Part shown: positions 2,851-30,300 of the stretch, piece after piece
Layout: each line of letters begins with the position of its first letter
How positions within the stretch are numbered: position 1 is the first letter of the stretch
Source of the DNA: Antedon mediterranea
Lineage: Eukaryota > Echinodermata > Crinoidea > Comatulida > Antedonidae
Length of the DNA stretch: 64,000 nucleotides
NCBI RefSeq assembly: GCF_964355755.1
Contig: NC_092672.1
Coordinates: forward strand, 12,272,501-12,336,500
Direction: 5' to 3'
Translations under genes and position numbers: made by a program
The notes under the pieces: generated by a model
Seen by the model: the letters and a program-made list of their open reading frames with translations, nothing else
What the model was told of the DNA's origin: nothing
Database searches by the model: none

Positions 2851-3380
2851 CTAAGCATTATATTCTAACTTTTCAGCAGGAACAGTCATGTTATTCTCCT
2901 TTAAAAATGCAATAAATGATTGCAAGTTATCCTCCCTTAGAATCCCCTTTTGTTCAAGATCTAATATCACAGTCCATTGGTTGTTACTTTGTTTTTTTAG
3001 AACACTTTTCAAACGGATGAGATCTCTTGTATTTTCTTCCGAAAGTGCGTCACCGAACTGAATTAGTTGTTGTCGATATGTTGAAAAGGATGTGATACAC
3101 TGGTTGGTTTTATCAAATGTCTCCTTTAACAGTTTGTTGACCTCCAGAACACCATTGGTACCAGTGACATTAATTGCGTCAACAAGAACTTTAACGTTTG
3201 TACTGGTAAGATGGCCAGATCGTTTCAATAGGTTGAAGAAACGTATGCAGTCAGCATCCTGCAAATCATTGTAAGGTGTTATCAGATCTTTGCATAACAC
3301 CTTTAGTTTATCAATTGAGCCATGTTCATCATACCAGCTTGATATGTTTACCACGATTTTTTCAAACTCTTCGGATGATC
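2851..3380 (-). CDS. Gene A last exon: two death-effector-like domains
   Basis: Terminal exon of about 176 residues; acceptor tttttacag at its 5' end, TAG at 2851-2853. Two helical modules are visible. The first has the pattern LKVLCKDLI, then FFNLLKRSGHL and VKVLVDAINVTG. The second runs from YRQQLIQFGDALSEE through TRDLIRLKSVL to LDLEQKGIL and LQSFIAFLKENN. Both match the order of DED helices 2-6 (LKxLC; LFxxLExxGxL; LxxLL), as in FADD, caspase-8 and FLIP. A plain Death domain is the alternative, but the short LExxG(I/H)L turn favours DED. Having both modules in one exon is compact. Likely role is homotypic recruitment of adaptors or caspases, inferred from the fold only. Confidence 0.65.
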
Positions 3381-6300: not shown

Positions 6301-9300
6301 TCATAGAGCAAACCAAATGTTTTCATCACTTCAGTAAAAATATCAAAACGATTTGGATCTTCTTCTAATTCTCTTTTCCATAAATGCCGTAGCAATTTTT
6401 CCTCAAGGATCCCTTCCTTGTTAAGCTTTTTCCAAAGATTTCTTAATTGTTTCTGTTTCCAAATAATAAATACAAAAACTAATTTGTAAACGTATTCATA
6501 CAACCACAATAAATGTTGACAACAAACAACTAACTAAATGTAATCATGTATCCACATGTCAATATTTTAAATCCGTTTTGTGACAATTATTTTGCTGCTA
6601 ACCTTATCTACTTACCACTTCAATAATTGGTTGAACTACTGTGATCACTTTTGTCACCATTTCAATCATCATGTAAAGATTTGTTATCACTGTGTTTCTT
6701 AATTTCTTATTAGTACTTGAATACATGATAACTCCAATGTCATTCAGGTACGCTATGGCAGTGGATAGCCAATCTTTTGAAATTCCACATTCAGTGCCGA
6801 CTTTAGATGTCTAATGCAAATTAATAACAAAATATAATGTACTGAATGTGATGATTAAATATTGTTATTTTCCTCTAAAAAAATTGTAAACAGCTTATTG
6901 TTGATTAAAACATATTTTTATCTAACATTCTTCACTTTGACTAGACATTTTAGAAAGCGCATTGTCGGAAAGGCATATTTCTGGTTAAATGTAACTGTTT
7001 CGTTGCATTTTTTTATATTTATTTTACATTATCTTTGTTCATTTTTCTTAGGAGATAGTAAATGACTTTATTCACATTACGAAATAACCAATTAAATTTT
7101 AGATTTTATTAGTCATCTCAGTTGTTCATGTTTTGCGGGAACAACTGAAACAAGAAAAATAGTACAATAATGATGAAGACTTCCCAAATACTAAAAAATG
7201 ACAAGACTATTGACTATTGTAATATTAATTCACATGGCTGGCTCAAAAAAAGAACTTGTCAACATTACATTGTAGACAGAAATGTGTCCTTCAAATTATG
7301 ACGTTATACATTATAATTGTTACCGTATAGTACACTATTTTTAATAAGATAATACATTATTTTGTACTAGTGTTCTTACTCCATATGTGTTTTATTAATC
7401 TGTGTTTACAGTTGTGACAACATAAAATTCACGGTTATACATTAAAAACCAAAATCTTACCTCAGTAAAAGTAATACACAGTGTTGTTTTTCCAATTTCT
7501 TGCATCTGTTCTTGCAAATCCACCCATTTTAATGGAACACTTCTCACCATGGCCTTCATATAACGACCAACGTTTCTCCTTAGTTGTTTTATACCTTCAT
7601 GCGATTTTACAGTGTTATCAACCATGTACATCTCACGATCTACATGATCGGCATATGGCATTCCTTCCATATTTTTAAACATTTTACGAAACTTATCCTC
7701 CACTTCCTTTAATAAAAAATGTTTTTCATAATTACAAGCTATAACAACAACAAGAATGTAATTATTCTTACAAACTGTTATTTCATTTCTGATTTGAATA
7801 AGTCTAACCAATAATTAAACTTAATACACGATTTAATTTGAGGACCGTAGGCTACGCTATTTAAACTTCATCACTGTATCGGTTTTAACTAATTCAGCTT
7901 TAATTCCGTCCGTGTATACCACATACCGTTGCAAAATTGTAAGCTTGTCTAATGTTAATGTACTTCTGTTACCTTGATCCAATTTTTAGATTTTGACTTT
8001 TTACGAAATGTGTCCATATGTGTAGCAACCAAACAGATAGGAGGTGACTCGATGATCTTGCCATCAATATTAATGGGACTTCCTGGACCATGTTGTGCCA
8101 CAGTATGTTCATAAATGGACCTTATCCAGAACATATTCATTTCCAAATTGGTCATTCCTAGTGTACTCTAAAATCACAAATAAAATGCAATCTTACAAAG
8201 TAAGCTAAAATATTTTCAATAACAAAGATATGCATATTTAATAAAGTGAATTCGAACGAAATAAGTAGGTAGTCAACTTACTGTGGTTGAATCTCGCGGA
8301 TTAGCTGGTTCATCCAAGTTATCACACGCATTAAACGTTACACAGTAGGACACTCTATTTGTGAGGAAAAACTAAACAAAATACAATTGATAATAATAAC
8401 TTTGTTTATACTTCAAGTCATTTATTAGGGATGTGTTAATTGATACATGAAATAATACTTTAGTGAAAATGTTATACCACACCACAATGTCGTCACTATG
8501 AGCAAATCTCTTTATTTTGTAATAATCATTTAACATATGAAACAAAAACTATAGAACAAACGAAAAAATACATAAATCAAATAAAATTTTAAAATATAAT
8601 TTAAATGTCTGTTTAATAAAATAGATACGTAAACAAGCAAATCAAGACCCTTTTTTTAAACATGCACCAATAAATTTATTTTTAAATTTTTAAGACATTT
8701 TTAAGTACAGTAATAGCAAATAACAAAATAGGAACATACCCTATGCGTTATGTAGTAGTCCAGTTGACCTGCGTAGTCCCATATAGTAGTTACGCCACTT
8801 GGAATACTTTCTGAATCATCACTTTTTACAAATTTCCTAAACATTTTCATCGCCCTACTATCTTTCTGTCTTCGCTTTTTTATTTTAGCAACAACTTTTT
8901 TTTTAATTGAGTCGGGAATTGTCAGATTTTCTTTTAGTTGACTCTCTAAATTCAAATAATTACTACAAATCAATGGTGTGTGTGTAAATTAGATATGGAT
9001 ATGGATAGATGGACTGGTCTGAATTTTTGTGATTAGACATAATGAATGTTATAAAGGATAAGTAAGTGTATACAATAAATAAATACATTAGTCAGAATAA
9101 TTAAAGAATTGAACGAGCAGCGAATATTATTGATTGCCCAGTTTTAATACCAATGCAATATTTGCATTTTAATACATTTATATGTTTGCAACAAGAACAA
9201 CCTCACTCTTCCATACATATTATTTTACAAAAATATAAAGAAAACCAAATAATGAGTCCAACCCTTTTTTGCCGAATCCACTGCCAATGACGTGTAATCA

Positions 9301-12300
9301 GACTCTCTGGAATCCGATGTAGAAGCCTCGCATAAAGGAAGTTCGTTGAAAGATGATCTTTCTTTCATCTTTGATGTAATTTCTTCGACTACAGCGTCTT
9401 CAAATATTCGCTGGGTTTGCTTGAATCTCAGGTTTTTTGTCGGCGAAAATGTATAACTAAAAATGATTATTTGTGTCATGTTGCACTCATAACGAATAAA
9501 ATGGTTATATTTTTATATACTAGAACACTGAAATATCACTTATAGGCCTGTATAAGCTCCACAGCTCTAAATTTACTTTATATTAATAATAATGAAACAA
9601 TAATATAAACAACACTCCTATGAAGTTATAGTGTTTATTTCAGCATCAGCATGTAGAATACACTACATTAATTTGTTATTTACATTAAATTGGTTTATTT
9701 ACTTTACAAAACCTAAACAATAAACTAAAATATTAATTTCTTTTCTTGTCATGAAATTAATTTGCTGTTATTAATTCGCGTGCTGACTTGATAGTAAAGT
9801 GATTAAAATGCGAAAAACCAAACTTTATTTATGCAAAATAATCGTCAGTACGTATTATATTATTGATGTTTATTTGAAAACTTTAAAAATATTTAAAAAA
9901 ATAATCAAACCTTCCACTGAATACACAGAGTCAGAAGATATAGAACATTCAAAATCAGATATCGAAGGTGTTGAAACAGCACCTTGTAAATGGAATTTGG
10001 TTTCAGTTGACGTTTGTTTTTCCATCTTTGCTGTGATGTGTTCAGGCGTTTTCTGGGATGTTCCTGCAATTCATTATAATATATTTTTGATACAATATAT
10101 AAAATGTCTAACATTTCACTTTTATGTATGTTTCTATACTGTATGAGTGCATCTTAACTTGATTTTGATCACCAATACAGTTTGTTTAGAATAATAAAAA
10201 TACCCTTGTAATATAAATTGTAGTAGATATTCATCATACCTGTTTTTACTGGATCCAAAGAAGAGATTGCTGATGATTCCAGTTGGGAATCAGATTTAGA
10301 TGTTGACATATCTGAACTTCCTTCGCCATCATCCATTTGTTCTTTTATTAACTGTGTTGCAAGTTTTTCTGCAAGTGCATCTTCCCGTATTTTCTTGTTG
10401 AGCTCCATAACTGTAAAAAAACACAAGGTGAAATAAGGTTGTACGGTACACATCATAGAAAATAAATTAAATACTAAAATTAGAAAAATGAGATATATCA
10501 TCAAATCACCGGTAAATAAAATAAATATAATATGTAGGTCATTTATGTAATTATAGACCAAAATGCATTTTTAAGTATTTATTAAAAATATTATTTCCAA
10601 TGTACCTTACCGGTACTTATTACCTTAATTATGGTACTAATAAATCTCTATACAAAAATTGCCCAAAGCAGGCAAGTATGCGTATGTTGAAGGAAGAGAG
10701 AGTTTCTCTCTTTTGTGGGGACAGCCCACTTTGAACGAACAGTTAATGTGTCATTTGTTATGTTTTAATTCTTCTTTTCAAACTTACCGTCGATATCTTC
10801 CTTCTTCCACTTGTCACAGTCGTTTCCAATTGCTTGAAACAATGTCGTTGTGATATCAATACCATCAGTAGATAGTTCGTTGGATTTAAATCTATAATAA
10901 TGAATAATGAACTCCAAAAGGTCGGATTTAATGAAAGTAGAATGTATCCAATTGTTCATCTTAAAATATTAATATATTTTTTGGTGCATCTTATAAAATA
11001 ACTTGGTTCTTTTGTTACCTTAGTCCAAGCATGGCCTTTACACAGCTAGTTTTTCCAGCACCTTCTTTCCCGAGAAACATACATCTTGAATTTACAACTG
11101 CAATCTCACCATTTTCAAGTTCATTTTGAAATGATCTAACTGCGCTTTCACCTCTAGCTAATATTTCATCTGGAACTAAATTGCAATTAAAATAAATGCA
11201 AAATATACAAAAACAAATGTAAAAATACAAATATTTTACACTTAAGAATCAATTCGAAGCCATAGTTTTAACAATGTCATTATGACTGCTCATCGTTGTC
11301 ACATTCATACAGTTCAAAGGTTCAGTACAATGTTCAATATGTGTCATTAGTAATATACTGTTTTTAAACAGTATATTACTAATGACACATTTTAAAATAT
11401 TAAAATATTCATGATGCAAAAATCAAGAAAAGTGCATTAATACAAACTTACTGTCAAATAACTTCAATATCTTATTTTTCGTCTGTTTGGAGATTAGAAT
11501 ATTTTCCTTCAAAGCAGATGCAGGTGTTTGTCCTCGCTATACAAAAAAATGTATTAAAGTATTATCCACTGTTACTTTACTAATACTAGTAATGTACATA
11601 ATCCGGATTGAAATTAATACATTTATAAGCCAATAACGTGCACACGTTAATATGACACAATCTGAGTATCTTTGCACTAGCCAACACCAACACTAACTGC
11701 TCTACCATTTAATGTTTAATGTGATTGAATACGGTACACTTTAAAAATGCTATTGAACATTTTTATAAAAGAATAGTCGATACTGATTAAATGTACATGT
11801 TAATTATCGCATCTATGAGAATGTACCACCATGCTAACATAATGACTTTAAATAATTAGCGCCCTTTCTGATATTCTTTAGCTCCATGTTAATAACATAC
11901 TCCTAATCACAATAAGAGTATATCTTGGATATAGGCGTAATGGTTTGCTTAATAAGCACAATTTAAAAATGCAAATTCAATTTTGCATTAATTGACGGTA
12001 CCTTGTTTCTTGCTCCAAGTGATGCTCCGTGGGCTATGAGACTGTTCACAATTTCTAAATTACCAATACCGCTAAAGCTGACGTGTTGATGTAGCGGTGT
12101 GTTTCCCTCCTAGAAAGCAGAAAGTTGTATGTATTATAATATACATTTTACACGTTTGATACTAGAACTAAGGTTTAAACACATATATTGTATTATTATC
12201 TTTCAGTAGGACTTCGTTGATCATCCCTGCCAAATCGCCAGGACTTGTCTGGTGGGTGTAGGCCAACTGGAAATGCGTCTGACAAGTGGACAGCAGGGAA

Positions 12301-15300
12301 TGAGTTCAACGGATGTGAAGCATATATGTCTATCGATTATTGAATGAAAGTTAGATGATAAATCTTAATTGGGGTAAAAAATTAACTTCAGTAATGTAAA
12401 CGGGGTCCCATCGTTTTATTATTTTTTATGAAATCATACACATAAGCGCCATTATTGGTTCGGCATCATAGTCCTCAAGGTTTATGGTAAAGAAATTGTC
12501 AAGTAAATGGAGTATGTTGTTAATTTTCTACGATAGACCACAGTATATCATTACTGTAAATAATACAACTAGTTGATTTTAATTGGGACGTGGAGAGGTG
12601 TTAGCAAACATTATTTTGAAAGTATTGGTATTAACGTCTTGTTAAATGCGGCAGCTATATGATGTTTAAAATAATTTAAACTCACTTTGATAAATAAATA
12701 TGACTTTTTTTCTAAATAAAAATAAATTAAACAAATTCAAGGTTTGTTTATACGGGAGCTCATTTAGATTAACTTATATTGTTAATTAATACGAATAATA
12801 ACGTTATTGATTTTTTAATCATTTTGAAAGAGTAATTTACATTGTTTGTTATATAGATACAGACGGGTTAGCACTGAACACATTTTAAAACTATTAATTT
12901 AGCGTCTTGTTCAACGTGTCTATGTAGCGGTGTGTTTCCATTCTTAAAAGTAGAAAGTTAGATTAAACTTGAGAAATTTTTTTAAGAATACCGGTATTAT
13001 TATATTACATATTTATCTTTTTCTATATTAATTTTCTAGTTCATTAAGAGTGACTGTAAATTATATAGAAGAACCTGGTATTAAGAAAATAATACAACTT
13101 GCTAATTTTAATTATTATAATACAGACGGGTTAGCAATGAACACATTTTAAGAAAATAATACAACTTGCTGATTTTAATTATTATAATACAGACGGGTTA
13201 GCATTGAACACATTTTAAAAGTATTAATTTAGCGTCTTGTTCAATCTAAAACCCTACAGCTACACAATGTTTAATATATTTTAAATTGTATTTTTGCTTT
13301 GATAATAACTATACATTTTTCCAATGAAATACACATTAAACGAATCTAGGGTTTGTTTATAACGGGAGATAATGTAAATTAACTTGTAGTGTTAACTAAT
13401 ACAAATAATTACATTAACCCTTTTTAATTCATTGTATGTAAAAGAGTAATTTACATTGTTTGTTGCTGTGATTGGTGCTCCATGGGTTATGAGACTGTTC
13501 ACTATCTCTACATTACCCTGGATAGACATAACGTGTGTATGTAGCGGTGTGTTTCCTTTCTGAAAAGAAGAAAGTTAGATTAAACTTGACGCATTTTTTT
13601 AAGAATACAGGTATTATTATATTACATATTTATCCTTTTCTATATTCATTTTGTAATTCATTAAGAGTGAATGTAAATTATATAGAAAAATCTAGTATTA
13701 AGAAAATAATTAAACTTGTTTAAAAAGTATTGATTTAGCGTCTTTTTCGATCTAAAACCCTACAGCTACACGATTTTCAATATATTTTAAATTTTATTTT
13801 TGCTTTGATAATAACTATACATTTTTCCAATGAAAAATACAATAAACGAATCTAGGGTTTGTTTATAACGGGAGATAATGTAAATTAACTTGTAGTGTTA
13901 ACTAATACAAATAATTACATTAATCCTTTTTAATTCATTGTAAAAGAGTAATTTACATTGTTTGTTGCTGTGATTGATGCTCCATGGGTTATGAGACTGT
14001 TCACTATCTCTACATTACCCTGGATAGATAGAACGTTTGTATGTAGCGGTGTGTTTCCTTTCTGAAAAGAAGAAAGTTAGATTAAACTTGACGCATTTTT
14101 TTAAAAATACAGGTATTATTATATTACATATTTATCCTTTTCTATATTCATTTTGTAATTCATTAAGAGTGAATGTAAATTATATAGACAAATCTAGTAT
14201 TAAGAAAATAATAAAACTTGTTCAAAAAGTATTGATTTAGCGTCTTGTTCGATCTAAAATGCTACAACTACACGATTTTCAATTTATTTTAAATTGTATT
14301 TTTGCTTTGATAATAACTAAACATTTTCAAATGAAAAACACAATAAACGAATCTAGAGTTTGCTTATAACGGGAGATAATACAAATTAATCTGTAGTGTT
14401 AACTAATACAAATAATTACGTTAATGATTTTTAAACGACATTGTATAAGAGTAATTTACATTGTTTGTTGCTGTGATTAGTGCTCCGTGAGCTATAAGAC
14501 TGTTCACTATCTCTACATTACCACGGCCAATCTCAACGTGTGCATGTAGCGGTGTGTTTCCATACTGAAAAGAAGAAAGTTAGTATTATTATATTTCATA
14601 TTTATCCTTTTCTACATTCATTTTCTAATTCTAAGAGTGAATGTAAATTATATGGAAATACCCGGTATTAAAAAAATAATGACTAACTGATTTCAATTAA
14701 GACATGCAGAGGATTTAGCAATGAACATCATTTTGAAAGTATTGATGTTAGCGTCTTGTTTAATCTAAAATTCGACAGCTTTACATGATGTTTAAATATC
14801 GTAAATTATATGGTGATGGTTAATCTATATATAAATTATGGTTAATTCTGACATAGGCGAGCACAATGCAAAAACTTCTCTACAAATCTCCGCCTTGGAT
14901 ACCTACCTTATCTATCCGAGATGTACCGCGAAACGTAGATTTGATAACATTAGTGTGCACGCCGACGCTATTGTTCCATATTTATATCTTAGGAAGATAT
15001 TATAAAGAGTTTTTTAACAACATTTATGATTTCAACATTGGATTTTCCTCTCAATTTCAATTCTTCCCGGTCAAAGTAATTTCCGGGTTTAAGATAAGTT
15101 CACCTTAGTTTCAAATATTTTCTCTCTTTTATACACAAGGGAGCAGTTAAAATAATAGATTTGACCCTAAAGGTGAAACAGGCACTTTCCATCAATCAAT
15201 ACAGTGTCCCTTTGGAAGACGAAAAAAAAATTGGCCATTAATCATAGCCATTTCAGTTTTTTGTTTATTTTAAAACATACCACACATGTGTGAAGGTACA

Positions 15301-18300
15301 GTAGTTAAATAGTAGGAATTATACTGCAAATTAATAAAGATCAAATTAAATATACGCCATAAAGAATCAGAATATATTGTGGGGAATAGTATTATAAAAT
15401 TACATAGGGAGATTTGATAAGACGTTTTTCGAGTGAAATCCCGATAGCTGAGGTTTATTGAGTAAGCTTGCAGGAATAACTGTAGGCTATCTTCCTGTGT
15501 CCCGTTGGGACCGAGATGTCTGCCCATGTTGCAAGCCGTAATGTCTTCTTTCTTGGGCCCACTCTGTCACGGCAGTTAGTTTCAAAAGATGATTAAATAA
15601 AATAATGTATTAATAATTATTAGGATGGTATTCATTTGAATAAACGCCTCTCCAATAAAACATCACTTTGAATAATAACCCCCCCCCCCCCCCACAACCC
15701 AACTATCTAATAAACGTCCATCCACATATTTATAATAACACAATTATACTATTTGTAGTAGAATTCACCGCACTGTTATCTGCAATTTACCAAGCATTTG
15801 TTACTCTTTTTTACCACTTTTCATATCTATGAGATGATTTCATTTGATTATAATTGTTACCATATTATTAGAACTAAAAAATTTAACATATATCCCTCGA
15901 ATAAGCACCTCCCTCAAATGACCTCCGCCTCCCCAAAGGGCCCTACCAAACAATAAAAACTATACTTTAAAATGTTATTAATCATCTAAGACACTGTGAA
16001 ACAAAGTAGTTCAGTTTTACGAATGTCAAGCATTTTCAATAATGGTAACCGACAGAAAATGTATAAGGAGAACATTATCATTCTAAGAACCATCGTCTAC
16101 ACTTCCTAGAGGGGGAGCGAGCGAAGCGAGCTCACCCTCTAGTAACTATAAATAATATAATTTATTAAATTAATAAACATATTCCTACGCCTAGACATTT
16201 CGTTTAGATTCAAGTAAACTTTCATGAATACTGAATTTGTAGATATGTATGTATTTATCAAACCGCCTTCAAAACATAATTGCAAATTCCAACAATACAC
16301 ACTACGGTGAATTCAATAAATATTTTGTTATATTATTAATCTACTATCCATCCCACCTTCATCCTACAATAAAAGAAAATATTACGTAATTCATTTCTCC
16401 CATTTGCTATGAGGCTTTTGAATGCAAGCTATGTGTATGTATCGTGTTATATGACATTTGCCTTTTTGTTATATTTGTTGCATTTGTATTTTATCCTATA
16501 GGTGACGTACTGTCTGTAGTTTACCATTTTTTTTTCTACTACGAATAATAACGTTAATGATTTAAATAATAGTAAATCTCTGTCAACGCTACCAAACTGT
16601 ATCAATAAAGTGTCGTACTGTCTGTATTTTACCAATTTTATCAAAGAATTGAATCAAACAACAATAAAAACAAACTACTATTTATCAACTATGAGATTTA
16701 AATGCATGCTTGAGTTGAGAGCAAGCAAAACCGTCAACAACAACAATGTATCTCGTCACTTTCCTACAAGCCAGCGTTGCCAGCGATAAAATTTAAATTA
16801 TGCCGTATCCTGTCTCAAATAATGCCAGATTGGGAAAAATAATGCCAGATCCCCAAAATGTGGCCCTAAACAGCGCCACCAACGGTTGTATGTCTAATAA
16901 ACGTTTGTAAAACCCCAACTGACACAAAATAGGGCCTAAAATTGTATCCCCATGTCGTACAAAATTTATATTTTTAGTTTTGTGAGTATTAACTAATAAT
17001 TCTAAATATCTGGGGTGCGAAAATGGTAATTGCAAATGACACCAACACCAACCCCTACCCCCCCCCCCCCCCACCCTATAAAATAAAAAAACAGCCATGG
17101 AAATTTATAATTTTTGAGCTGAAATATGAGAGCTGCTCGATGGCCGGGATATTTGCACTTAATTTTAAAAAATGAAAGGATCTTATAGCCACCATAATTA
17201 GAAAATGGAAATTATAATTTAAAATAGGAAATAAAAAAGATTATTTTGAGTGTCTCCAGGACCTCAGCCCCACCATGGTTGATAAGAACATTTGGAAAAA
17301 TACAGCTACTCGATGGCCGGAAATGGCACTTAATTAATATGAAATAAAAATATATTTATTAGTGTCTCCATGATCTTAGCCCACCATAGTTCGAAAATGG
17401 CAATTATAATTTAAAATAGGAAATCAAAATATATATTAATTGTGTCTCCAGGACCTCATGGTTGGGGCTGAGGTAAGAAAATTTGAAAAAATAGAGCTGC
17501 TCAATGGCCGGAAATGGCACTTAATTTCAAATATAAAATAAATTTATTAGTACCTCCAGGATCTTAGCCCATGATAGTTTTGAAAGTGCCAATTATAATT
17601 TAAAATAGGAAATAAAAATATATATTAAGTGTTTCCAGGACCTCAGCCCCACCATGGTTGGGGCTGAGGTAAAACAAATTGGAATAATAGAGCTGCTAGA
17701 TGGCCGGAAATTGCACTTAATTTTAAATAAAAATGTATAAGAGTCCCTAGGACCTCGCCCCATCATGGTCACTGAGAGATGAAGAACATTTGGAAATATA
17801 GGGTTGCTACGACGATGCAAATGGAACATAATTTGAAATATGGAAAACAAATTCTCTAGAAGAAATTCTTTTTAAAATTAGAGCTTCTAGTTACCGGAAA
17901 TTGCCATTTTAAGGGTTGGGGTAGGGGTGTGGCCGCTTATAATTATGAACTGAAAAAACAAAACCCCTTTCATAATGTGTTTTCGTTCAATTGTCTCTAT
18001 ATCTGGGGATCCAATAACCTGCATGGTCTCTGAAATAGAGCAACATAATTGGCCAATAGGTAGCCTCTTCGGATTTGTTGTGCTGCCTATATCGCACACA
18101 CGGTAGTTTTCGAGCAGCCTTCCTATCCGAAGAGCCGATTAAGTCCGAAACGAAAGGATGGAAAAACTATTGTACGGAAAACCCGAACAGATCTGTTTTG
18201 TACGATATGATATTGTGTAGGGTGATATGTATTAACAAAATATTTTATTTTTGTTCTGTGGTATATTATTTTTCTGGTTGTTCAAAAAACACAAAATTAT

Positions 18301-21300
18301 GCCAGATTATGCTAAAAACGGCTAAATAATGCCGCGGCATTATGCCAGATGCCGTGGGCCTCCAAATAATGCCAAAAAGCATAATAATGCCAGAAATGGC
18401 AACTATGCTACAAGCTTGCCGTTAAATAATTATAGAGGGGGTAGTTTCAATAAACTTTGGCAGACGGCAAACATACAATGTATAGAGTGCGTTTAAAAAT
18501 ATTTTCGGAGCTTATTAATGAGATCAGTATTTGTAGTAGACATGAAGACAATATATTTTAATTTAGATTGATTATTTGTGTAAGAGGAAAACATATACTT
18601 AGTTCTACTATCTGAATAAACTAAAGGGAATTCATCTTCAATTGATTGTAGAGAGCATAATTTGCATAGTCTATCATTTCTATTAGGCCTAATACGATTC
18701 CATCTTCCTTTTTCTAGTTATAATATTCCTAGTCTTTGTTTAGTCACAATGTGTCTATGTTTGTAATTTTAATTACGTATTCTTCCGTTCCAACATAATT
18801 TATATTGATTGCGTGTAAAATATTGGAGCTTATAGAGAGTGTAACCTATTATCTCATAGAATTGTGTCGTTCAATAAGCCTCGCCTTTGTTTAAATTTAG
18901 AAATAAAAAATATTGTTGACCTGTTGAGCATGCCATGTTGCCAAACCCATTTATACATAATAAGTTTTACATCATTGACCCAAATTGCTCATTTTGTTAC
19001 GTTTTTCTATGTTGAAAATCATAACATTGTTTAATGAATTTTTAATAATCTATTTGGCTTACTCTCAGCCACTAACGAATTAAATTAATGATAGTTGGAG
19101 TTTGGATAGGGAATCCTCGACATTCTCCTTTCATTACATCACTTGGAGCAGAATTTTCTATTCCTAAAATATATTTTTATTCTAAAATCAAAATATAATC
19201 CGAGTGGTATGAAGAAATTGTTCATCTGCTGGAAAACTACAAGTCAGTCGATGCTACAAACCACAAGGAAAGTCATTATATCTCAGATGCTAGTGAAGTA
19301 GTATGTGGTCAATGCACGTATTTAAGATTGATGACTCACGATAATATTCCTTCTATTTCTCTACTATTACAGTAGCTAACGCCAAAGTTACCCCAGCTAA
19401 AAAAAACAAGATATCAAGTGTATGTAGCTAACCGGGTACAACAAATCAACGATGCAACTTCCATAGAAAACATCTTCTAATCCGAGTGATATAGTCAGTA
19501 GAGCCGTGCGTGCTAACAGTAAGCAATTGATTTCAGATACCGGATGGGTGAGTAGTTCTACACTTCTTCACCAGGTAGTTCTTAACAAACAAAGGCGGTT
19601 GGCCGAAATCGATGACGAATCGAGTATAAGGTTGTTGCTTCAGAACTAAAATATATTCGCTCATTCCACACTAATGTTGACAAAGTTGCTTCAGAATGGT
19701 TTTATAACAGACAGATAAAATGAACTATAAATCACATTAAATGTATTGAATGTTCATTCCCCTTAAAGGAACCAACACGTAGTAAGGCATATTTTTTAGA
19801 TATGCCTATCAATGGTAAACTTAACAGTGATATAAGACAGCAAAACACATGCAATAATTTAATATGAAAAGATTGGTGTAAATATTGCGAGGAGCCATGT
19901 AACGGCAGTATGTGTAACCGAGTTAATGATTATGTAATTGTTGTTGAAGATATGCTCATCGGGAATAATTTGCATAAAATACCATGTTAGCCTACGTATA
20001 TTAGAAATCTCACTAGCTGTGTAGTTAGTTGAGACGATGCTATCGTCAGCTGCACGATTTTTAATATATTTTAAATTGTAGTTTTGCTTTGATAATAAAT
20101 GATTTTAATTATTATAATACAGAAGGGTTAGCATTGAACCCATTTTAGAAGTATTGGTTTAGCGTCTTGTTCAATCTAAAACGCTACAGCTACACAATTT
20201 TTAATATATTTTAAATTGTATTTTTCATTTGATAATAACTATACACTTTTCCAAAGAAAAACACATTAAACAAATCTAGGATTTACTTATAACGGGAGAT
20301 AATATAAATAATTACGCTATGGATTTTTAAATCATTGTATAAGAGTAATTTACATTTTTTGTTGCTGTAACTGATGCTCCGTTGGCTATAAGACTGTTCA
20401 CTATCTCTACATTACCCCTGCCAAACCTAACGTGTTCATGTAGCGGTGTGTTTCCATCCTGAAAAGAAGAAAGTTAGTATTATTATATTTCATATTTTTC
20501 TTTTCTAGATTCATTTTTTAATTCATTAAGAGTGACCGTAAATTATCTAGAAATACCTAGTATTAAGAAAATAATAAAACTTGTTTAAAAAGTATTAATT
20601 TCGCGTTTTTTTTTTATCTAAAACGCTACAGCTACACAATTTTCAATATATTTTAAATTGTATTTTTGCTTTGATAATAACTAAACATTTTTCCAATGAA
20701 AAACACAATAAACGAATCTATGGTTTGCTTATAACGGGAGATAATGTAAATTCACTTGTAGTGTTAACTAATACGAATAATTACGTTAATGATTTTTAAA
20801 TCATTGTATAAGAGTAATTTACATTGTTTGTTGCTGTGATTAGTGCTCCGTGAGCTATAAAACTGTTCACTATCTCTAAATTACCACGGCCAAACTCAAC
20901 GTGTCTATGTAGCGGTGTGTTTCCATCCTGAAAAGAAGAAAGTTAGTATTATTATATTTCATATTTATCCTTTTCTACATTCATTTTCTAATTCTAAGAG
21001 TGAATGTAAATTATATGGAAATACCTGGTATTAAAAAAATGACTAACTGATTTCAATTAAGACATGCAGATGATTTAGCAATGAACATCATTTTGAAAGT
21101 ATTGATTTTAGCGTCTTGTTTAATCTAAAATTCGACAACTGTACATGATGTTTAAATATCGTAAATTATATGGTGATGGTTAATAACTATAAATAATATA
21201 ATTTATTAAATTAATAAACATATTCCTACGGCTAGACATTTCGTTTAGATTCAAGTAAACTTTCATGAATACTGAATTTGTAGATATGTACGTATTTACC

Positions 21301-24300
21301 AAACCGCCTTCAAAACATAATTGCAAATTCCAACAATACACACTTACGGTGAATTCAATAAATATTTTGTTATATTATTAATCTACTATCCATCCCACCT
21401 TCATCCTACAATGAAAAAAAATATTACGTAATTCGTTTCTCCCATTTGCTATGAGGCTTTTGAATGCAAGCTATGTGTATGTATCGTGTTATATGACATT
21501 TGCCTTTTTGTTATATTTGTTGCATTTGTATTTTATCCGGTGACGTACTGTCTGTAGTTTACCATTTTTTTTTCTACTAGGAATAATAACGTTAATGATT
21601 TAAATAATAGTAAATCTCTGTCAACGCTACCAAACTGTATCAATAAAGTGTCGTACTGTCTGTATTTTACCAATTTTATCATATCTTTACTATATTTATT
21701 TAATATGTGACAAGCAGGACAATTTGTTTTACATTTCTCAGAGCTTGTTGGTATATCATCATAATTACATTTTTCACAAATTAAAATATTGTGGTTTAGG
21801 GCCTACATAGTTATTATCAAACATTCTCATATACAGTACTTCATTGCCTCTTTGTACTGTATTTCACCTTTCCTAGCTGTGGATGCTTGCCAACGTCGCA
21901 TAACATACTCGTTTAACTATCATTAATAACCAATAAACAAGTTAGCAAAATCTGTCTCACTACATTTGGCCAGTGCCATTAAAAAAACTTCTTGGAAGAG
22001 AGATGAGGATCTCAAAATCACAATAAATGCGTTAAAATTGAATCAAACAACAATAATAACAAACTACTATTTATCAACTGTGAGATTTAACAACAACAAT
22101 GTATCTCGTCTCTTTCCCTCAAGCTTGCCGTTACATAATTATAGAGGGGGTAGTTTCAATAAACTTTGGCAGACGGCAAACATACAATGTATAGAGTGCG
22201 TTTAAATATTTTCTGAGCTTACTACTAATGAGATCAGTATTTGTAGTAGACATAAGGACAATATATTTTAATTTAGATGGATTATTTGTGTAAGATGATC
22301 GAAAACATATACTTAGTTCTACTCTGAATAAACTAAAAGGAATTCATCTTCAATTGATTGTAGAGAGAATAATTTGCATAGTCTATCATTTCTATTAGGC
22401 CTAATACGATTCCATCTTCATTTTTCTAGTTATAATATTCCTAGTTAAGTCACAATGTGTCTATGTTTTTAATTTTAATTAAGTATTCTTCCATAATTCC
22501 AACATAATTTACATTAAATGCGTGTGAAATATTGGAGCTTATAGAGAGTGTAACCTATTATCTCATAGAATTGTGTCGTTCAATAAGCCTCGCCTTTGTT
22601 TAAATTTTGAAATAAAAAATATTGTTGACCTGTTGAGCATGCCATGTTGCCAAATCCATTTATTCATAATAAGTGTTACATCATTGACCCAAATCGCTCA
22701 TTTTGTTGCGTTTTTCTATGTTGAAAATCATAACATTGTTTAATGAATTTTTCATAATCTATTTGGCTTACTCTCAGCCACTAACGAATTAAATTAATGA
22801 TACTTAGAGTTTGGATAGGAAATCCTCGACATTCTCCTTTCATTACATCACTTGGAGCAGATTTTTCTATTCCTAAAAGATATTTTTATTCTAAAATCAA
22901 AATATAATCCAAGTGGTATGAAAAAATTGTTCATCTGCTGGAAAACTACAAGTCAGTCGATGCTACAAACCACAAGGAAATTTATTATATCTCAGATGCT
23001 AGTGAAGTAGTATGTGGTCAATGCACGTATTTAAGGTTGATGACTCATGATAATATTCCTTCTATTTCTCTACTATTAGCTAACGCCAACGTTACCCCAG
23101 CTAAAAAAAAACAAGGTATCAAGTGTATGTAGCTAACCGGGTACAACAAATCAACGATGCAACTTCCATAGAAAACATCTTCTAATCCGAGTGATATAGT
23201 CAGTAGAGCCGTGCGTGCTAACAGTAAGCAATTGATTTCAGATACCGGATGGGTGAGTAGTTCTACACTTCTTCACCAGGTAGTTCTTAACAAACAAAAG
23301 CTGTTGGCCGAAATCGATGACGAATCGCGTATAAGGTTGTTGCTTCAGAACTAAAATATATTCGCTCATTCCACACTAATGTTGACAAAGTTGTTTCAGA
23401 ATGGGTTTATAACAGACAGATAAAATGAACTATAAATCACATTAAATGTATTGAATGTTCATTCCCCTTAAAGGAGCCAACACGTAGTAAGGCATATTTT
23501 TTAGATATGCCTATCAATGGTAAACTTAACAGTGATATAAGACAACAAAACACATGCAATAAATTAATATGAAAATATTGGTGTAAATATTGCAAGGAGC
23601 CATGTAACGGCAGTATGTGTAACTGAGTTAATGATTATGTAATTGTTGTTTAAGATATGCTCATCGGGAATAATTTGCATAAAATACCATGTTAGCCTAC
23701 GTATATTAGAAATCTCACTAGCTAGTGTAGTTAGTTGAGACGATGCTATCGTCAGCTGCACGATTTTTAATATTTCTTAAATTGTGGTTTTGCTTTGATA
23801 ATAAATGATTTTAATTATTATAATACAGAAGGGTTAGCAATGAACACATTTTAAAAATATTAATTTAGGCTCTTGTTCAATCTAAAACGCTACAGCTACA
23901 CAATTTTTAATATATTTTAAATTGTATTTTTCCTTTGATAATAACTATAGACTTTCCAAAAGAAAAACACATTAAACAAATCTAGGATTTGCTTATAACG
24001 GGAGATAATTCAAATAATTACGCTATGGATTTTTAAATCATTGTGTAAGAGTAAATTACATTGTTTGTTGCTGTGACTGAGGCTCCGTTGGCTATGAGAC
24101 TGTTGACTATCTTTACATTACCCCTGCCAGACCTAACGTGTTCATGTAGCGGTGTGTTTCCATCCTGGAAAGAAGAAAATTAGTATTATTATATTTCATA
24201 TTTTTCTTTTCTATATTCATTTTCTAATTCATTAAGAGGGAATGTAAATTATATAGAAATACCTGGTATTAAGAAAACAATGACTAACTGATTTCAATTA

Positions 24301-27300
24301 AGACATGCCGATTATTTAGCAATGATCATTTTAAAAGTATTGATTTTAGCATCGTGTTTAATCTAAAATTCGACAGCTGTACATGATGTTTAAATATCGT
24401 AAATTATATGGTGATGGTTAGTAACTTTAAATAATATAATTTATTAAATTAATAAACATATTCCTACGCCTAGACATTTCGTTTAGATTCAAGTAAACTT
24501 TAATGAATACTGAATTTGTAGATCTGTATGTATTTACCAAACCGCCTTCAAAACATAATTGCAAATTCCAACAATACACTCTACAGTGAATTAAATAAAT
24601 ATTTTGTTATATTATTAATCTATTATCCATCCCACCTTCATCCTACAATGAAAATATTACGTAATTCGTTTCTCCCATTTGCTATGAGGCCTTTGAATGC
24701 AAGCTATGTTTATGTATCGAGTTATGACATTTGCCTTTTTGTTATATTTGTTGCATTTGTATTTTATCCTATAGGTGTCGTACTGTCATGTATTTTACCA
24801 TTTTTTTTTCTACTACGAATAATAAGGTTAATGATTTTAAATAATAGTAAATCTCTGTCAACGCTACCAAACTGTATCAATAAAGTGTCGTACTGTCTGT
24901 ATTTTACCAATTTTATCATATCTTTACTATATTTATTTAATATGTGACAAGTAGAAAAATTTGTTTTACATTTCTCAGAGCTTGTTGGTATTTCATCATT
25001 ATTACATTTTTCACGAATTAAAATATTGTGGTTTAGGGCCTACATAGTTATTATCAAACATTCTCATACACAGTACTTCATTGCCTCTTTGTACTGTATT
25101 TCACCTTTCCTAGCTGTGGATGCTTGCCAACGTCGCATAACATACTCGTTTAACTATCAAATAACAAATAAACAAGTAGCAAAATCTGTCTCACCACATT
25201 TGGCCAGTGTCATAAAAAAAAAAAAAAATTGGAAGACAGATGAGGATCTAAAAATCACAATAAATGCGTTAAAATTGAATCAAACAACAATAATAACAAC
25301 CTACTATTTATCAACTGTGAGATTTAAATGCATGCTTGAGTTGAGAGCAAGTAAAACCGTTAACAACAACAATGTATCTCGTCTCTTACCCTCAAGCTTG
25401 CCGTTAAATAATTATAGAGGGGGTAGTTTCAATAAACTTTGGCAGACGGCAAACATACAATGTATAGAGTGCGTTTAAATATTTTCTGAGCTTACTAATG
25501 AGATCAGTATTTGTAGTAGACATAAGGACAATATATTTTGATTTAGATGGATTATTTGTGTAAGAGGAAAACATATACTTAGTTCTACTATCTGAATAAA
25601 CTAAAAGGAATTCATCTTCAATTGATTGTAGAGAGCATAATTTGCATAGTCTATCATTTCTATTAGGCCTAATACGATTCCATCTTCCTTTTTCTAGTTA
25701 TAATATTCCTAGTCTTTGTTTAGTCACAGTGTGTCTATGTTTTTAATTTTAATTAAGTATTCTTCCATAATTCCAACATAATTTACATTGAATGCGTGTG
25801 AAATATTGGAGCTTATAGAGAGTGCAAACTATTATCTCATAGAATTGTGTCGTTCAATAAGCCTCGCCATTGTTTAAATTTTGAAATAAAAAAATATTGT
25901 TGACCTGTTGAGCATGCCATGTTGTCAAATCCATTTATACATAATAAGTTTTTCATCATTGACCCAAATCGCTCATTTTGTTGCGTTTTTCTATGTTGAA
26001 ATCATAACATTGTTTAATGAATTCTTAATAATCTATTTGGCTTACTCTCAGCCACTAACGAATTAAATTAATGATACTTGGAGTTTGGATAGGGAATCCT
26101 CAACATTCTCCTTTCATTACATCACTTGGAGCAGAATTTTCTATTCCTAAAAGATATTTTTATTCTAAAATCAAAATATAATCCAAATGGTATGAAGACA
26201 TTGTTCATCTGCTGGAAAACTACAAGTCAGTCGATGCTACAAACCACAAGGGTTTGGAGAAGTCAAGCAGGCAGAAATTCATTATATCTCAGATGCTAGT
26301 AAAGTAGTATGTGGTCAATGCACGTATTTAAGATTGATGCCTCATGATAATATTTCTTCTATTTCTCTATTATTAGCTGACGCCAGCTAAAAAAACAAGA
26401 TATCAAGTGTATGTAGCTAACCGGGTATACAACAAATCAACGATGCAACTTCCATAGAAAACATCTTCTAATCCGAGTGATATAGTCAGTAGAGCCATGC
26501 GTGCTAACAGTAAGCAATTGATTTCAGATACCAGATGGGGTGAGTAGTTCTACACTTCTTCACCAGGTAGTTCTTAACAAACAAAGGCGGTTGGCCGAAA
26601 TCGATGACGAATCGCGTATAAGGTTGTTGCTTCAGAACTAAAATATTTTCGCTCATTCCACATTAATGTTGACAAAGTTGTTTCAGAATGGTTTTATAAC
26701 AGACAGATAAAATGAACTATAAATCACATTAAATGTATTGAATGTTCATTCCCCTTAAAGGAGCCAACACGTAGTAAGGCATATTTTTTATTAGATATGC
26801 CTATCAATGTTAAACTTAACAGTGATATAAGACAACAAAACACATGCAATAATTTAATATGAAAAGATTGGTGTAAATATTGCAAGGAGCCATGTAACGG
26901 CAGTATGTGTAACTGAGTTAATGATTATGTAATTGTTGTTGAAGATATGCTCATCGGAAATAATTTGCATAAAATACCATGTTAGCCTACGTATATTAGA
27001 AATCTCACTAGCTAGTGTAGTTAGTTGAGACGATGCTATAGTCAGCTGCACGATTTTTAATATATTTTAAATTGTAGTTTTGCTTTGATAATAAATGATT
27101 TTAATTATTATAATACAGAAGGGTTAACAATGAACACATTTTTAAAATAATAATTTAGGCTCTTGTTCAATCTAAAACGCTACAGCTACACGATTTTTAA
27201 TATATTTTAAATTGTATTTTTCCTTTGATAATAACTATACACTTTTCCAAAGAAAAACACATTAAACAAATCTAGGACTTGCTTATAACGGGATATAATA

Positions 27301-30300
27301 TAAATCATTACGCTATGGATTTTTAAATCATTGTATAAGAGTAATTTACATTGTTTGTTGCTGTAACTGATGCTCCGTTGGCTATGAGACTGTTCACTAT
27401 CTCTACATAACTCCTGTCAGACCCAACGTGTTCATGTAGCGGTGTGTTTCCATCCTGAAAAGAAGAAAGTTAGTATTATTATATTTCATATTTTTCTTTT
27501 CTACATTCATTTTCTAATTCATTAAGAAGGAATGTAAATTATATAGAAATACCTGGTATTAAGAAAATAATGACTAACTGATTTAAATTAAGACATGCAG
27601 ATTATTTAGCAATGATCATTTTAAAAGTATTGATTTTAGCATCTTGTTTAATCTAAAATTCGACAGCTGTACATGATGTTTAAATATCGTAAATTATATG
27701 GTGATGGTTAGTAACTTTAAATAATATAATTTATTAAATTAATAAACATATTCCTACGCCTAGACATTTCGTTTAGATTCAAGTAAACTTTAATGAATAC
27801 TGAATTTGTAGATCTGTATGTATTTACCAAACCACCTTCAAAACACAATTGCAAATTCCAACAATACACTCTACGGTGAATTAAATAAATATTTTGTTAT
27901 GTTATTAATCTATTATCCATCCCACCTTCCTCCTACAATGAAAATATTACGTAATTCGTTTCTCCCATTTGCTATGAGGCTTTTGAATGCAAGCTATGTG
28001 TATGTATCGAGTTATGACATTTGCCTTTTTGTTATATTTGTTGCATTTGTATTTTATCCTATAGGTGTCGTACTGTCATGTATTTTACCATTTTTTTTTC
28101 TACTACGAATAATAAGGTTAATGATTTTAAATAATAGTAAATCTCTGTCAACGCTACCAAACTGTATCAATAAAGTGTCGTACTGTCTGTATTTTACCAA
28201 TTTTATCATATCTTTACTATATTTATTTAATATGTGACAAGCAGGACAATTTGTTTTACATTTCTCAGAGCTTGTTGGTATTTCATCATAATTACATTTT
28301 TCACAAATTAAAATATTGTGGTTTAGGGCCTACATAGTTATTATCAAACATTCTCATATACAGTACTTCATTGCCTCTTTGTACTGTATTTCACCTTTCT
28401 TAGCTGTGGATGCTTGCCAACGTCGCATAACATACTCTTTTAACTATCAAATAACAAATAAACAAGTAGCAAAATCTGTCTCACCACATTTGGCCAGTGT
28501 CATAAAAAAAAAAAAATTGGAAGACAGTTGAGGATCTGAAAATCACAATAAATGCGTTAAAATTGAATCAAACAACAATAATAACAACCTACTATTTATC
28601 AACTGTGAGATTTAAATGCATGCTTGAGTTGAGAGCAAGTAAAACCGTTAACAACAACAATGTATCTCGTTTATAGAGGGGGTAGTTTCAATAAACATTG
28701 GCAGACGGCAAACATACAATGTATAGAGTGCGTTTAAATATTTTCTGAGCTTACTAATGAGATCAGTATTTGTAGTTGACATAAGGACAATATATTTTGA
28801 TTTAGATGGATTATTTGTGTAAGAGGAAAACATATACTTAGTTCTACTATCTGAATAAACTAAAAGGAATTCATCTTCAATTGATTGTAGAGAGCATAAT
28901 TTGCATAGTCTATCATTTCTATTAGGCCTAATACGATTCCATCTTCCTTTTTCTAGTTATAATATTCCTAGTCTTTGTTTAGTCACAGTGTGTCTATGTT
29001 TTTAATTTTAATTAAGTATTCTTCCATAATTCCAACATAATTTACATTGAATGCGTGTGAAATATTGGAGCTTATAAAGAGTGCAAACTATTATCTCATA
29101 GAATTGTGTCGTTCAATAAGCCTCGCCATTGTTTAAATTTTGAAATAAAAATATATTGTTGACCTGTTGAGCATGCCATGTTGTCAAATCCATTTATACA
29201 TATAAAGTTTTACATCATTGACCCAAATCGCTCATTTTGTTGCGTTTTTCTATGTTGAAATCATAACATTGTTTAATGAATTTTTAATAATCTATTTGGC
29301 TTACTCTCAGCCACTAACGAATTAAATTAATGATACTTGGAGTTTGGATAGGGAATCCTCGACATTCTCCTTTCATTACATCACTTGGAGCAGAATTTTC
29401 TATTCCTAAAAGATATTTTTATTCTAAAATCAAAATATAATCCAAATGGTATTAAGACATTGTTCATTTGCTGGAAAACTACAAGTCAGTCGATGCTACA
29501 AACCACAAGGGTTTGGAGTAGTCAAGCAGGCAGAAATTCATTATCTCAGATGCTAGTGAAGTAGTATGTGGTCAATGCACGTATTTAAGATTGATGCCTC
29601 ATGATAATATTTATTCTATTTCTCTATTATTAGCTGACGCCAGCTAAAAAAACAAGATATCAAGTGTATGTAGCTAACCGGGTATACAACAAATCAACGA
29701 TGCAACTTCCATAGAAAACATCTTCTAATCCGAGTGATTTAGTCAGTAGAGCCATGCGTGCTAACAGTAAGCAATTGATTTCACATACCGGATGGGTGAG
29801 TAGTTCTACACTTCTTCACCAGGTAGTTCTTAACAAACAAAGGCGGTTGGCCGAAATCGATGACGAATCGCGTATAGTTGTTGCTTCAGAACTAAAATAT
29901 ATTCGCTCATTCCACACTAATTGTTTCAGAATGGTTTTATAACAGACAGATAAAATGTATTGAATGTTCATTCCCCTTAAAGTAGCCAACAAGTAGTAAG
30001 GCATAATTTTTCACGCTGCTGCTTTAGCCCGCTACATCCCAGGAGGATGACACATTAAGAAACCGAAAGTAAAGCAGCAGTTATATATCCAAGGTTGACA
30101 GTTTTGCTAAAATGCATACTCGACTGTAATTTATAGGTACCACCAAAAAATGTCTGGGAAAAAGTCTAACGGTTGAATGACAAATCCTAAAGCATTTGTG
30201 GTATTTATGAGTCCCATGATATTATATAGTTCGTTGTCATACATTATTCAAAGGTTTTCTTGTTTTTCATCCTTGAGTTTACCGTAAACATGGTGATGAT

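What the first reader, a model, noticed from the sequence alone, without database searches (positions are those of the whole stretch)
12002..27454. Modular ankyrin exon array with variation focused on the binding surface
Eleven intact ankyrin exons in the two genes keep 'GNTPLH-x-HV ... GNVEIVNSLIxHGA' almost fixed. Position 8 is E, T, A, R, Q or K, and positions 11-14 read MSIQ, LSIQ, EIGR, RFGR, EFGR, RSGR, GSDR, MVGY, KGGY or TLGD. Position 1 also varies (D, K, Y, E). In the ankyrin fold these are the beta-turn and first helix, the surface used for ligands. Being phase 0-0 and 105 bp, exons can be added or lost without harming the frame, a natural combinatorial recognition system.
Basis: partly seen in the sequence, partly recalled or inferred. 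Interest (0 to 1): 0.85.

Follow-up and report, generated by a model that had tools for sequence, protein, structure and literature searches.

The report
Hypervariable ankyrin exons in death-domain receptors
An animal genome carries clusters of genes built from interchangeable one-exon ankyrin repeats whose predicted target-touching residues change several times faster than the neighbouring introns, joined to a GTPase and a cell-death domain, which looks like an inherited repertoire of recognition proteins.

Summary
Confirmed. The window holds 11 intact minus-strand ankyrin exons (8 in gene A, 3 in gene B), phase 0-0; 10 are 105 bp, one 108 bp. They belong to a cluster with 11 Roc-bearing genes and 51 intact 35-residue cassettes. 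In 17 independent close pairs these codons differ 6.2 times more than flanking introns; the rest of the exon matches the introns. Amino-acid changes at third positions are raised too, synonymous changes are not: selection, not targeted mutation. A second cluster repeats the pattern; a third does not. The genes continue into Roc-COR and a caspase-8-like tandem death-effector domain (Z 17). Best reading: germline-diversified intracellular recognition receptors feeding death signalling, convergent with brown-algal LRR-ROCO genes and fungal ankyrin NLRs. Variation between individuals, alternative splicing, ligand and species are unknown. New variant of a known kind.

The parts
27350..27454 (-). 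gene A ankyrin cassette exon (5'-most found), 105 bp
   Evidence: open, AG/GT flanked, phase 0-0
24060..24164 (-). gene A cassette exon, in a 3.3-kb tandem unit also seen at about 20 and 27 kb
20823..20927 (-). gene A cassette exon
20354..20458 (-). gene A cassette exon
14460..14564 (-). gene A cassette exon
13957..14061 (-). gene A cassette exon (0.5-kb tandem unit)
13455..13559 (-). gene A cassette exon (0.5-kb tandem unit)
12913..12941 (-). truncated cassette remnant (5' part only)
12002..12109 (-). gene A 3'-most ankyrin exon, 108 bp, C-terminal cap type (ARNK end, gtaccgtcaa donor)
30379..30434 (-). candidate N-terminal ankyrin cap exon (peptide NVLLRAVRYRNLEKIEEI) 5' of the array
   Evidence: similar stretches in L046 (E 4e-8), L044 (1e-6) and weakly L028 (0.003); exon ends inferred
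11021..11176 (-). gene A Roc exon with P-loop GKEGAGKTS (approximate ends)
   Evidence: Pfam Roc above cut-off on joined exons
10786..10891 (-). gene A Roc exon 2 (approximate ends)
8743..8945 (-). gene A Roc exon with WDYAGQLD (G3-like; approximate ends)
   Evidence: motif name recalled
7993..8166 (-). gene A Roc exon with ATHMD (G4-like; approximate ends)
   Evidence: motif name recalled
7470..7704 (-). gene A COR exon 1 (approximate ends)
   Evidence: Pfam COR-A 55.9 bits on joined exons
6625..6810 (-). gene A COR exon 2 (approximate ends)
6288..6452 (-). gene A COR exon 3 (approximate ends)
5878..6180 (-). gene A exon after COR exon 3, presumed COR C-terminal part (no Pfam domain of its own)
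2854..3381 (-). gene A tandem death-effector domain exon
   Evidence: DED 32.9 bits, under cut-off 35.9; caspase-8/cFLIP tDED, Z 17.2
62016..62120 (-). gene B cassette exon
59707..59811 (-). gene B cassette exon
59164..59268 (-). gene B 3'-most cassette (105 bp, cap-type end ARNK)
57736..57864 (-). gene B Roc P-loop exon
   Evidence: G000:C3:12330236-12330364
53511..53840 (-). open frame holding gene B COR exon 1
52006..52332 (-). open frame holding the gene B counterpart of 5878-6180
50192..50719 (-). gene B tandem death-effector domain exon

Best explanation
The exons encode the sensor of a tandemly duplicated family of intracellular proteins with the order ankyrin array - Roc GTPase - COR - tandem death-effector domain. 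Each 35-residue repeat is one symmetric phase 0-0 exon. Whole genes and single cassettes have been duplicated within a 0.7-Mb cluster (shown) and probably exchanged (suggested). After duplication, codons 1, 8, 11, 12 and 14 of the cassettes are driven apart by strong diversifying selection (shown as a codon-level signal), while the Roc-COR-DED part is kept (shown for gene A against gene B). By alignment to designed ankyrin proteins these sites lie on the beta-turn, helix 1 and the loop after it, the face used for targets (by homology). Inferred: the array binds varied non-self or modified-self ligands; binding switches the Roc-COR GTPase module and exposes the tandem DED, which recruits caspase-8/FADD-type partners for cell death or related signalling. 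Diversity is germline: different genes carry different sets of cassettes.
For: Held-out test: in 41 cassettes outside the window the top five variable sites are 11, 8, 14, 12, 1. Sites 1, 8, 11, 12, 14 each positive at p<2e-3, 35 tests, uncorrected. 12 null simulations gave 0.53-1.16. 17 independent nearest pairs (34 of 51 cassettes): 88 of 306 nt differ in the six codons, 82 of 1479 in the rest, 300 of 6456 in flanking intron; Fisher p 3e-40 vs intron. Third-position amino-acid changes also raised (beta3 3.7 vs alpha 0.38, p 1e-5), synonymous change at those codons not. Second cluster, 40 distinct cassettes: sites 11, 13, 14, 12 most variable, w at 11-14 15 vs 2.1; third cluster, 22 distinct, shows none (0.70 vs 0.81). 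Constant exons A vs B (10 of 11 compared): pN/pS 0.38 overall. Pfam Roc and COR-A above cut-off on joined exons. Tandem DED: pLDDT 89.9, Z 17.2, 164 of 175 residues, rmsd 2.5 to caspase-8/cFLIP. Eleven Roc exons in the cluster. Sites 1 and 11, and 12 or 14, fall on DARPin variable positions 3, 13 and 14 (alignments; positions from passages of PMC10484509).
Against: No expression, splicing, ligand or population data; the immune step is by analogy. w values may be inflated by exchange of short tracts between cassettes (exon more alike than flanks in 6 listed pairs) and by poorly resolved trees. In 4 of the 17 pairs the six codons differ at only 1-2 nt, once hardly more than the rest of the exon. 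In the second cluster the other sites also exceed 1 (w 2.0-2.1), so part of that signal is general. Among constant exons Roc1 and COR2 alone have pN/pS 0.85 and 1.44, on few changes. The DED is below Pfam's cut-off, and the top row of its profile search was an unrelated protein A chain just ahead of cFLIP. The 5' end of the genes is unresolved. Two of 11 Roc exons have no close DED exon beside them in the list.
Confidence: 0.7

Rival explanations
1. A targeted mutation process (hypermutation, templated or editing) hits these codons, without selection on the protein.
For: The excess over introns is large: up to 7 of 18 nt in the six codons against 5 of 398 intron nt and 0 of 87 other exon nt in one pair.
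Against: Synonymous rate at these codons is not raised (0.33-0.38, against 0.66 at the other codons); amino-acid-changing third positions are raised like first and second; the affected codons 1, 8, 11, 12, 14 are scattered between little-affected ones.
Confidence: 0.05
2. Loop positions are merely free of constraint and drift neutrally.
For: They lie in turns, helix 1 and a loop by homology.
Against: They change 6.2 times faster than introns in 17 independent pairs and w=1 is rejected; the C9 cluster with the same repeat type shows no excess.
Confidence: 0.02
3. Exon shuffling and gene conversion among old cassettes generate the present differences between near-identical introns; diversification itself is ancient and slow.
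For: In six listed pairs the exon is closer than its flanks; genes A and B are mosaic (Roc to COR2 pS 0-0.055, COR3 to DED 0.22-0.28). The nearest flank lies in another gene for 44 of 51 cassettes, but about 47 would do so by chance, so this only shows that genes do not keep private cassettes.
Against: Donor exons would bring differences at other codons too; pairs with 0-3 such differences and 5-8 at the six codons exist. Selection is still needed to make the contrast between sites.
Confidence: 0.15
4. The genes serve self/non-self (allorecognition) or recognition of an internal, fast-evolving partner, not pathogen sensing.
For: Fungal NLRs with highly conserved repeats under positive selection include het-d and het-e, which mediate heterokaryon incompatibility (PMC12222747, start of abstract in a listing; PMC4986451, passages).
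Against: Nothing here separates it from pathogen sensing.
Confidence: 0.2
5. Cassettes are alternatively spliced to give many isoforms per gene (Dscam-like), so diversity is combinatorial within one animal.
For: Cassettes are phase 0-0 with near-identical splice sites, so any subset keeps the frame; brown-algal LRR-ROCO genes do this (PMC11378527, abstract and section 11).
Against: No transcript evidence; uniformly strong splice sites fit constitutive inclusion equally well.
Confidence: 0.25

Closest known systems
Brown-algal LRR-Roc-COR (ROCO) genes with shuffled single-repeat exons (PMC11378527; Zambounis et al. 2012 as cited there, not seen)
   Same: Roc-COR core; one repeat per symmetric exon; positive selection on a few concave-face sites; many paralogs
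   Different: LRR not ankyrin; 72-bp phase-2 not 105-bp phase-0 exons; LRR-ROC-COR is stated there to be the only architecture, so no death-effector domain; alga not animal; alternative splicing shown there, untested here
Fungal NLRs with highly conserved ankyrin repeats (PMC4986451, passages)
   Same: Near-identical ankyrin repeats with positively selected sites, with one exception on the concave face; repeat-number change
   Different: NACHT/NB-ARC switch; repeat-number polymorphism shown between strains there, not testable here; the passages I saw do not speak of one exon per repeat
DAPK1 (kinase-ANK-Roc-COR-death domain; PMC6320773, passages)
   Same: ANK then Roc-COR then a death-fold domain
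   Different: Tandem DED instead of a death domain; kinase not found (5' end unresolved); repeats hypervariable and multi-copy
Caspase-8 / cFLIP tandem DED
   Same: Predicted fold of the C-terminal exon (Z 17.2)
   Different: C-terminal to an ANK-Roc-COR protein, no caspase domain in the exon; about 18% identity
DARPin libraries (designed ankyrin proteins)
   Same: Variation at beta-turn and helix-1 positions on a constant scaffold
   Different: Natural; two extra residues in the stretch between helix 1 and helix 2; site 8 also varies; DARPin position 2 (cassette residue 35) does not vary much

Membership tests
ROCO proteins | Roc GTPase domain followed by COR | tested here: met
   Joined gene A exons (two linker exons left out, ends approximate): Roc 31.7 bits (cut-off 27), COR-A 55.9 (cut-off 35.3), in that order; PDB phmmer hits are chains named leucine-rich-repeat protein / Rab family protein (bacterial Roco, recalled) and LRRK2
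ROCO proteins | GTP binding and hydrolysis | not testable with these tools
   P-loop present in sequence
Shuffled-exon ROCO receptors of brown algae | one repeat per symmetric exon, many copies | tested here: met
   51 cassettes, 105 bp, phase 0-0
Shuffled-exon ROCO receptors of brown algae | LRR repeats | tested here: not met
   Ankyrin (Ank_2 1e-36 on five joined cassettes)
Shuffled-exon ROCO receptors of brown algae | positive selection on ligand-face sites | tested here: met
   the face is assigned by homology
Shuffled-exon ROCO receptors of brown algae | alternative splicing of repeats | not testable with these tools
   no transcripts held
DAPK1 class | C-terminal death domain | tested here: not met
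   Tandem DED instead
DAPK1 class | N-terminal kinase | tested here: inconclusive
   5' end not resolved
NLR / STAND receptors | NACHT or NB-ARC NTPase between sensor and effector | tested here: not met
   Joined core gives Roc and COR-A, no NACHT/NB-ARC up to E 0.1; two linker exons were not in that scan
Tandem death-effector domain proteins | two packed DEDs | tested here: met
   AlphaFold pLDDT 89.9; Z 17.2 to a caspase-8/cFLIP assembly over 164 of 175 residues; profile hit to cFLIP E 0.003
Tandem death-effector domain proteins | Pfam DED curated cut-off | tested here: not met
   32.9 bits vs 35.9
RAG-type somatic rearrangement | heptamer-nonamer signals with 12/23 spacers near cassettes | tested here: inconclusive
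   0 sites with up to 3 mismatches in 11.9-30.6 kb, and 0 in shuffles, so no power (consensus recalled)

The most novel reading that the evidence does not exclude
An animal has evolved an inherited, antibody-mimetic recognition repertoire: at least about a hundred single-exon ankyrin cassettes (51 and 44 examined in two clusters) diversified on the face that engineers randomise in DARPins, spliced to a ROCO switch and a caspase-8-type tandem death-effector domain, convergent with brown algae and fungi, and possibly expanded further by alternative cassette use or by exon-number polymorphism between individuals.
Probability: 0.5. Interest if true: 0.9.

Novelty: new variant of a known kind. Interest (0 to 1): 0.77.

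Why it matters
How animals without rearranging receptors generate recognition diversity is an open question. Here the introns give a neutral yardstick for each cassette, so diversification can be measured site by site. The same logic (one repeat per symmetric exon, selected ligand face, Roc-COR switch) in brown algae and now with ankyrin repeats plus a tandem death-effector domain in an animal would be strong convergence, and the natural arrays are a ready-made set of ankyrin binders to test against ligands.

Tried and rejected
Targeted hypermutation: rejected by unraised synonymous rate and raised third-position amino-acid change. Neutral drift of loops: rejected. Generic property of ankyrin exons in this genome: argued against by the C9 control. 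RAG-type signals: none found, none expected by chance, so uninformative. N-terminal exons: nucleotide similarity between upstream regions and a 71-bp satellite swamped the protein comparison; only one candidate cap exon was found. Organism: no COX1 match in G000, so no mitochondrial clue; a bryozoan guess from genome size was looked up (listing and start of abstract: Membranipora membranacea, 339 Mb, 11 pseudomolecules) and does not equal the 354 Mb held, so the species stays unidentified. That it is an animal rests on the tandem DED and caspase genes and recalled knowledge that such domains are animal. DED-caspase genes: caspase-family matches exist (33), but I did not show a DED exon joined to one.

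Rows dropped: 3 of 54 PSSM hits (36-aa caps) before counts on 51; 6 further caps and 4 truncated remnants were seen only by nucleotide search; 207 of 1275 cassette pairs with short flank alignments; in the C11 set 5 candidates without AG/GT at the expected places were rejected before the 44 kept, then 1 misaligned copy and 3 identical copies, leaving 40; 2 identical C9 copies of 24, one of the 24 lacking an AG acceptor. One of 11 constant exons was left out of the A-B comparison because it aligned with gaps.
Full report
WHAT IS THERE. The window is G000:C3:12272501-12336500 of a 354-Mb assembly in 18 contigs. On the minus strand gene A carries eight intact ankyrin exons (27454 to 12002) and gene B three (62120 to 59164). 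Ten are 105 bp; the 3'-most exon of gene A is 108 bp and belongs to a cap type with its own donor sequence. They begin and end in phase 0. A protein search of the whole genome (150 of 234 candidates scored) put its 59 best matches (E up to 6e-6) in one stretch, C3:11.93-12.62 Mb, all on the minus strand. I fetched those arrays and found 54 rows, of which 51 are 35-residue cassettes with an AG acceptor. A nucleotide search of the fetched cluster loci gave 64 hits: the 54, six more caps with one-codon length differences and four truncated remnants. None of the 60 complete copies has a frameshifting indel. In 17 pairs the flanks have 99 gap events per 6456 aligned bases, so about 27 would be expected in as much exon; because the 51 were collected without gaps, the nucleotide search is the fairer check, and it agrees.

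THE VARIATION TEST. In 41 cassettes outside the window the five sites of highest entropy are 11, 8, 14, 12, 1, then 3; mean entropy is 2.52 bits at the six sites and 0.48 elsewhere. There are 50 distinct combinations at the six sites among 51 cassettes; the one repeat is two identical neighbouring exons.

A codon model of my own (MG94-type, tree from exon plus flanks) gave w 7.9 at the six sites and 0.80 at the other 29 for all 51 cassettes, 8.2 and 0.77 for the held-out 41, and 9.1 and 0.74 without two divergent copies; w=1 at the six sites is rejected each time (2dlnL 177-196). Of 35 sites tested singly, without correction, 1, 8, 11, 12, 14 are positive (p from 1.6e-3 to 3e-6), 15 weakly (p 0.016), 13 not (p 0.20); 23, 25 and 26 are under purifying selection. 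Twelve null simulations with trees re-inferred gave w between 0.53 and 1.16.

Introns supply the neutral yardstick. In 17 non-overlapping nearest pairs with intron divergence under 10%, 88 of 306 nucleotides differ in the six codons, 82 of 1479 in the other codons and 300 of 6456 in the flanks: 6.2 times and 1.19 times the intron rate (Fisher p 3e-40 and 0.16). The sharpest pair has 7 of 18, 0 of 87 and 5 of 398. Four of the 17 pairs differ at only 1 or 2 of the 18 nucleotides, so the effect is not uniform. The scaffold looks fixed mainly because copies are recent, while the six codons have run ahead. Over 1068 usable pairs of 1275 the difference at the six sites barely depends on intron distance (rho 0.07), i.e. 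it is soon saturated.

SELECTION OR MUTATION. Synonymous change at the six codons is not raised (alpha 0.33-0.38, against 0.66 at other codons). When first/second and third positions get separate non-synonymous rates, the third-position rate is 3.7, not different from 5.2 (p 0.15) and far above the synonymous rate (p 1.3e-5). What is favoured is a new amino acid, not a base change at a particular place. That argues for selection on the protein.

REPLICATE AND CONTROL. That the other sites also exceed 1 there means that part of the signal is general. Arrays at C9:14.27-14.46 Mb, also one repeat per exon, show no contrast: 0.70 against 0.81 in 22 distinct copies. The feature is therefore specific to some clusters. 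It was not tested with the codon model in the clusters on C1, C3:19-25 Mb, C4, C5 and C8.

THE REST OF THE GENE. Downstream exons of gene A, joined approximately and without two linker exons, score above Pfam's cut-off for Roc (31.7 bits) and COR-A (55.9); the closest solved structures by sequence are two chains named leucine-rich-repeat protein and Rab family protein (bacterial Roco proteins, recalled) and LRRK2. The last exon scores for DED just under the cut-off (32.9, cut-off 35.9). A profile of 22 genomic sequences finds cFLIP tandem DEDs at E 0.003, just behind an unrelated protein A chain at 0.002. AlphaFold2 gives pLDDT 89.9 and the model matches caspase-8/cFLIP tandem DED structures (Foldseek best E 2e-4; Z 17.2, rmsd 2.5, 164 of 175 residues; helical bundles can reach Z about 13-14 by arrangement alone, and the top rows here are tandem DEDs throughout). 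Across the 10 of 11 constant exons that align without gaps, A and B have pN/pS 0.38, and the gene A exons have no stops as I bounded them; Roc1 and COR2 alone give 0.85 and 1.44 on few changes. Roc to COR2 have pS 0-0.055 and COR3 to DED 0.22-0.28, a mosaic that suggests gene conversion. The cluster has 11 Roc exons and nine close DED exons; two Roc genes lack a close one in that list. Cassettes per Roc gene range from 1 to 7, plus one orphan; the gene limits were set by me from the Roc positions. In 44 of 51 cassettes the nearest flank lies in another gene, close to the 47 expected by chance, so genes do not keep private cassettes. In the window itself 0.5-kb and 3.3-kb tandem units carry cassettes.

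WHICH SURFACE. Four joined cassettes align to DARPins and ankyrins over nearly their whole length. Cassette site 1 falls on DARPin repeat position 3, site 3 on 5, site 8 on 10 and site 11 on 13. The two extra residues are placed either at 12-13 or at 14-15 in different alignments of that call, so position 14 is matched by site 14 or by site 12. Positions 2, 3, 5, 13, 14 of each repeat (45, 46, 48, 56, 57 and +33) are variable, concave-face positions of DARPins (PMC10484509, passages; conversion to repeat numbering is mine). Either way three of the five selected sites are DARPin library positions and a fourth lies in the insertion.

HOW IT WORKS. Shown: modular exons, recent duplication, diversifying selection on the predicted ligand face, conserved GTPase and death-fold parts. 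Suggested: exchange between genes. Inferred: binding of variable ligands by the array switches Roc-COR and releases the tandem DED for caspase-8/FADD-type assembly. Caspase-family genes are present in the genome (33 matches). The immune or allorecognition role is analogy. That the exons are joined in one mRNA is inferred from order, strand and splice signals, not from transcripts.

WHAT IS KNOWN. The nearest precedent is brown algae, where ROCO genes have one LRR per 72-bp phase-2 exon, four positively selected concave sites and alternative splicing (PMC11378527, abstract, passages and section 11). Fungal NLRs have nearly identical ankyrin repeats with positive selection, mostly on the concave face, and repeat-number polymorphism (PMC4986451, passages). 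Roc-COR proteins with immune-type domains are known in sea anemones and Aplysia (PMC5094078, PMC9334734, passages), there with TIR, LRR, kinase or death domains. I found no description of hypervariable single-exon ankyrin cassettes in ROCO-DED genes in the listings of searches of the held open-access library; most subscription papers are not held. I file it as a new variant of a known kind.

Noticed in passing
window 45106-48020: 71-bp satellite, 41 copies at 96%, between genes A and B; the same unit recurs upstream of other cluster genes (L044, L046).
   Followed up: partly
window 525-1380 and 1413-2101: 39-bp (22 copies) and 34-bp (20 copies) minisatellites 3' of gene A; the first is open in several frames.
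   Followed up: no
window 2854-11176 vs 50192-57864: Genes A and B are mosaic: Roc to COR2 exons nearly identical at silent sites, COR3 to DED 22-28% different.
   Followed up: partly
G000 genome-wide: Tandem-DED-like exons number at least 150 (150 of 427 first-look candidates scored), a very large death-fold expansion.
   Followed up: no
G000:C3:19-25 Mb, C5:12.4-14.4 Mb, C9:13-15 Mb, C1:8.6-8.7 Mb: Further megabase-scale or smaller clusters of single-exon ankyrin repeats, some next to Roc exons; the C9 copies are scarcely variable at the sites studied here.
   Followed up: partly
window 60.0-61.4 kb: Similar peptide stretches on opposite strands (about 60179 + and 61343 -) suggest an inverted-repeat element in a gene B intron.
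   Followed up: no
window 19-29 kb: 3.3-kb tandem units in gene A introns carry stretches that look like LINE C-terminal fragments (e.g. 28651-28956 -); likeness recalled, no Pfam match above cut-off.
   Followed up: no
G000:C5:22.03-22.14 Mb: Eight caspase-family matches in tandem; a weak Roc-exon match lies beside one of them (C5:22076138, E 0.004).
   Followed up: no
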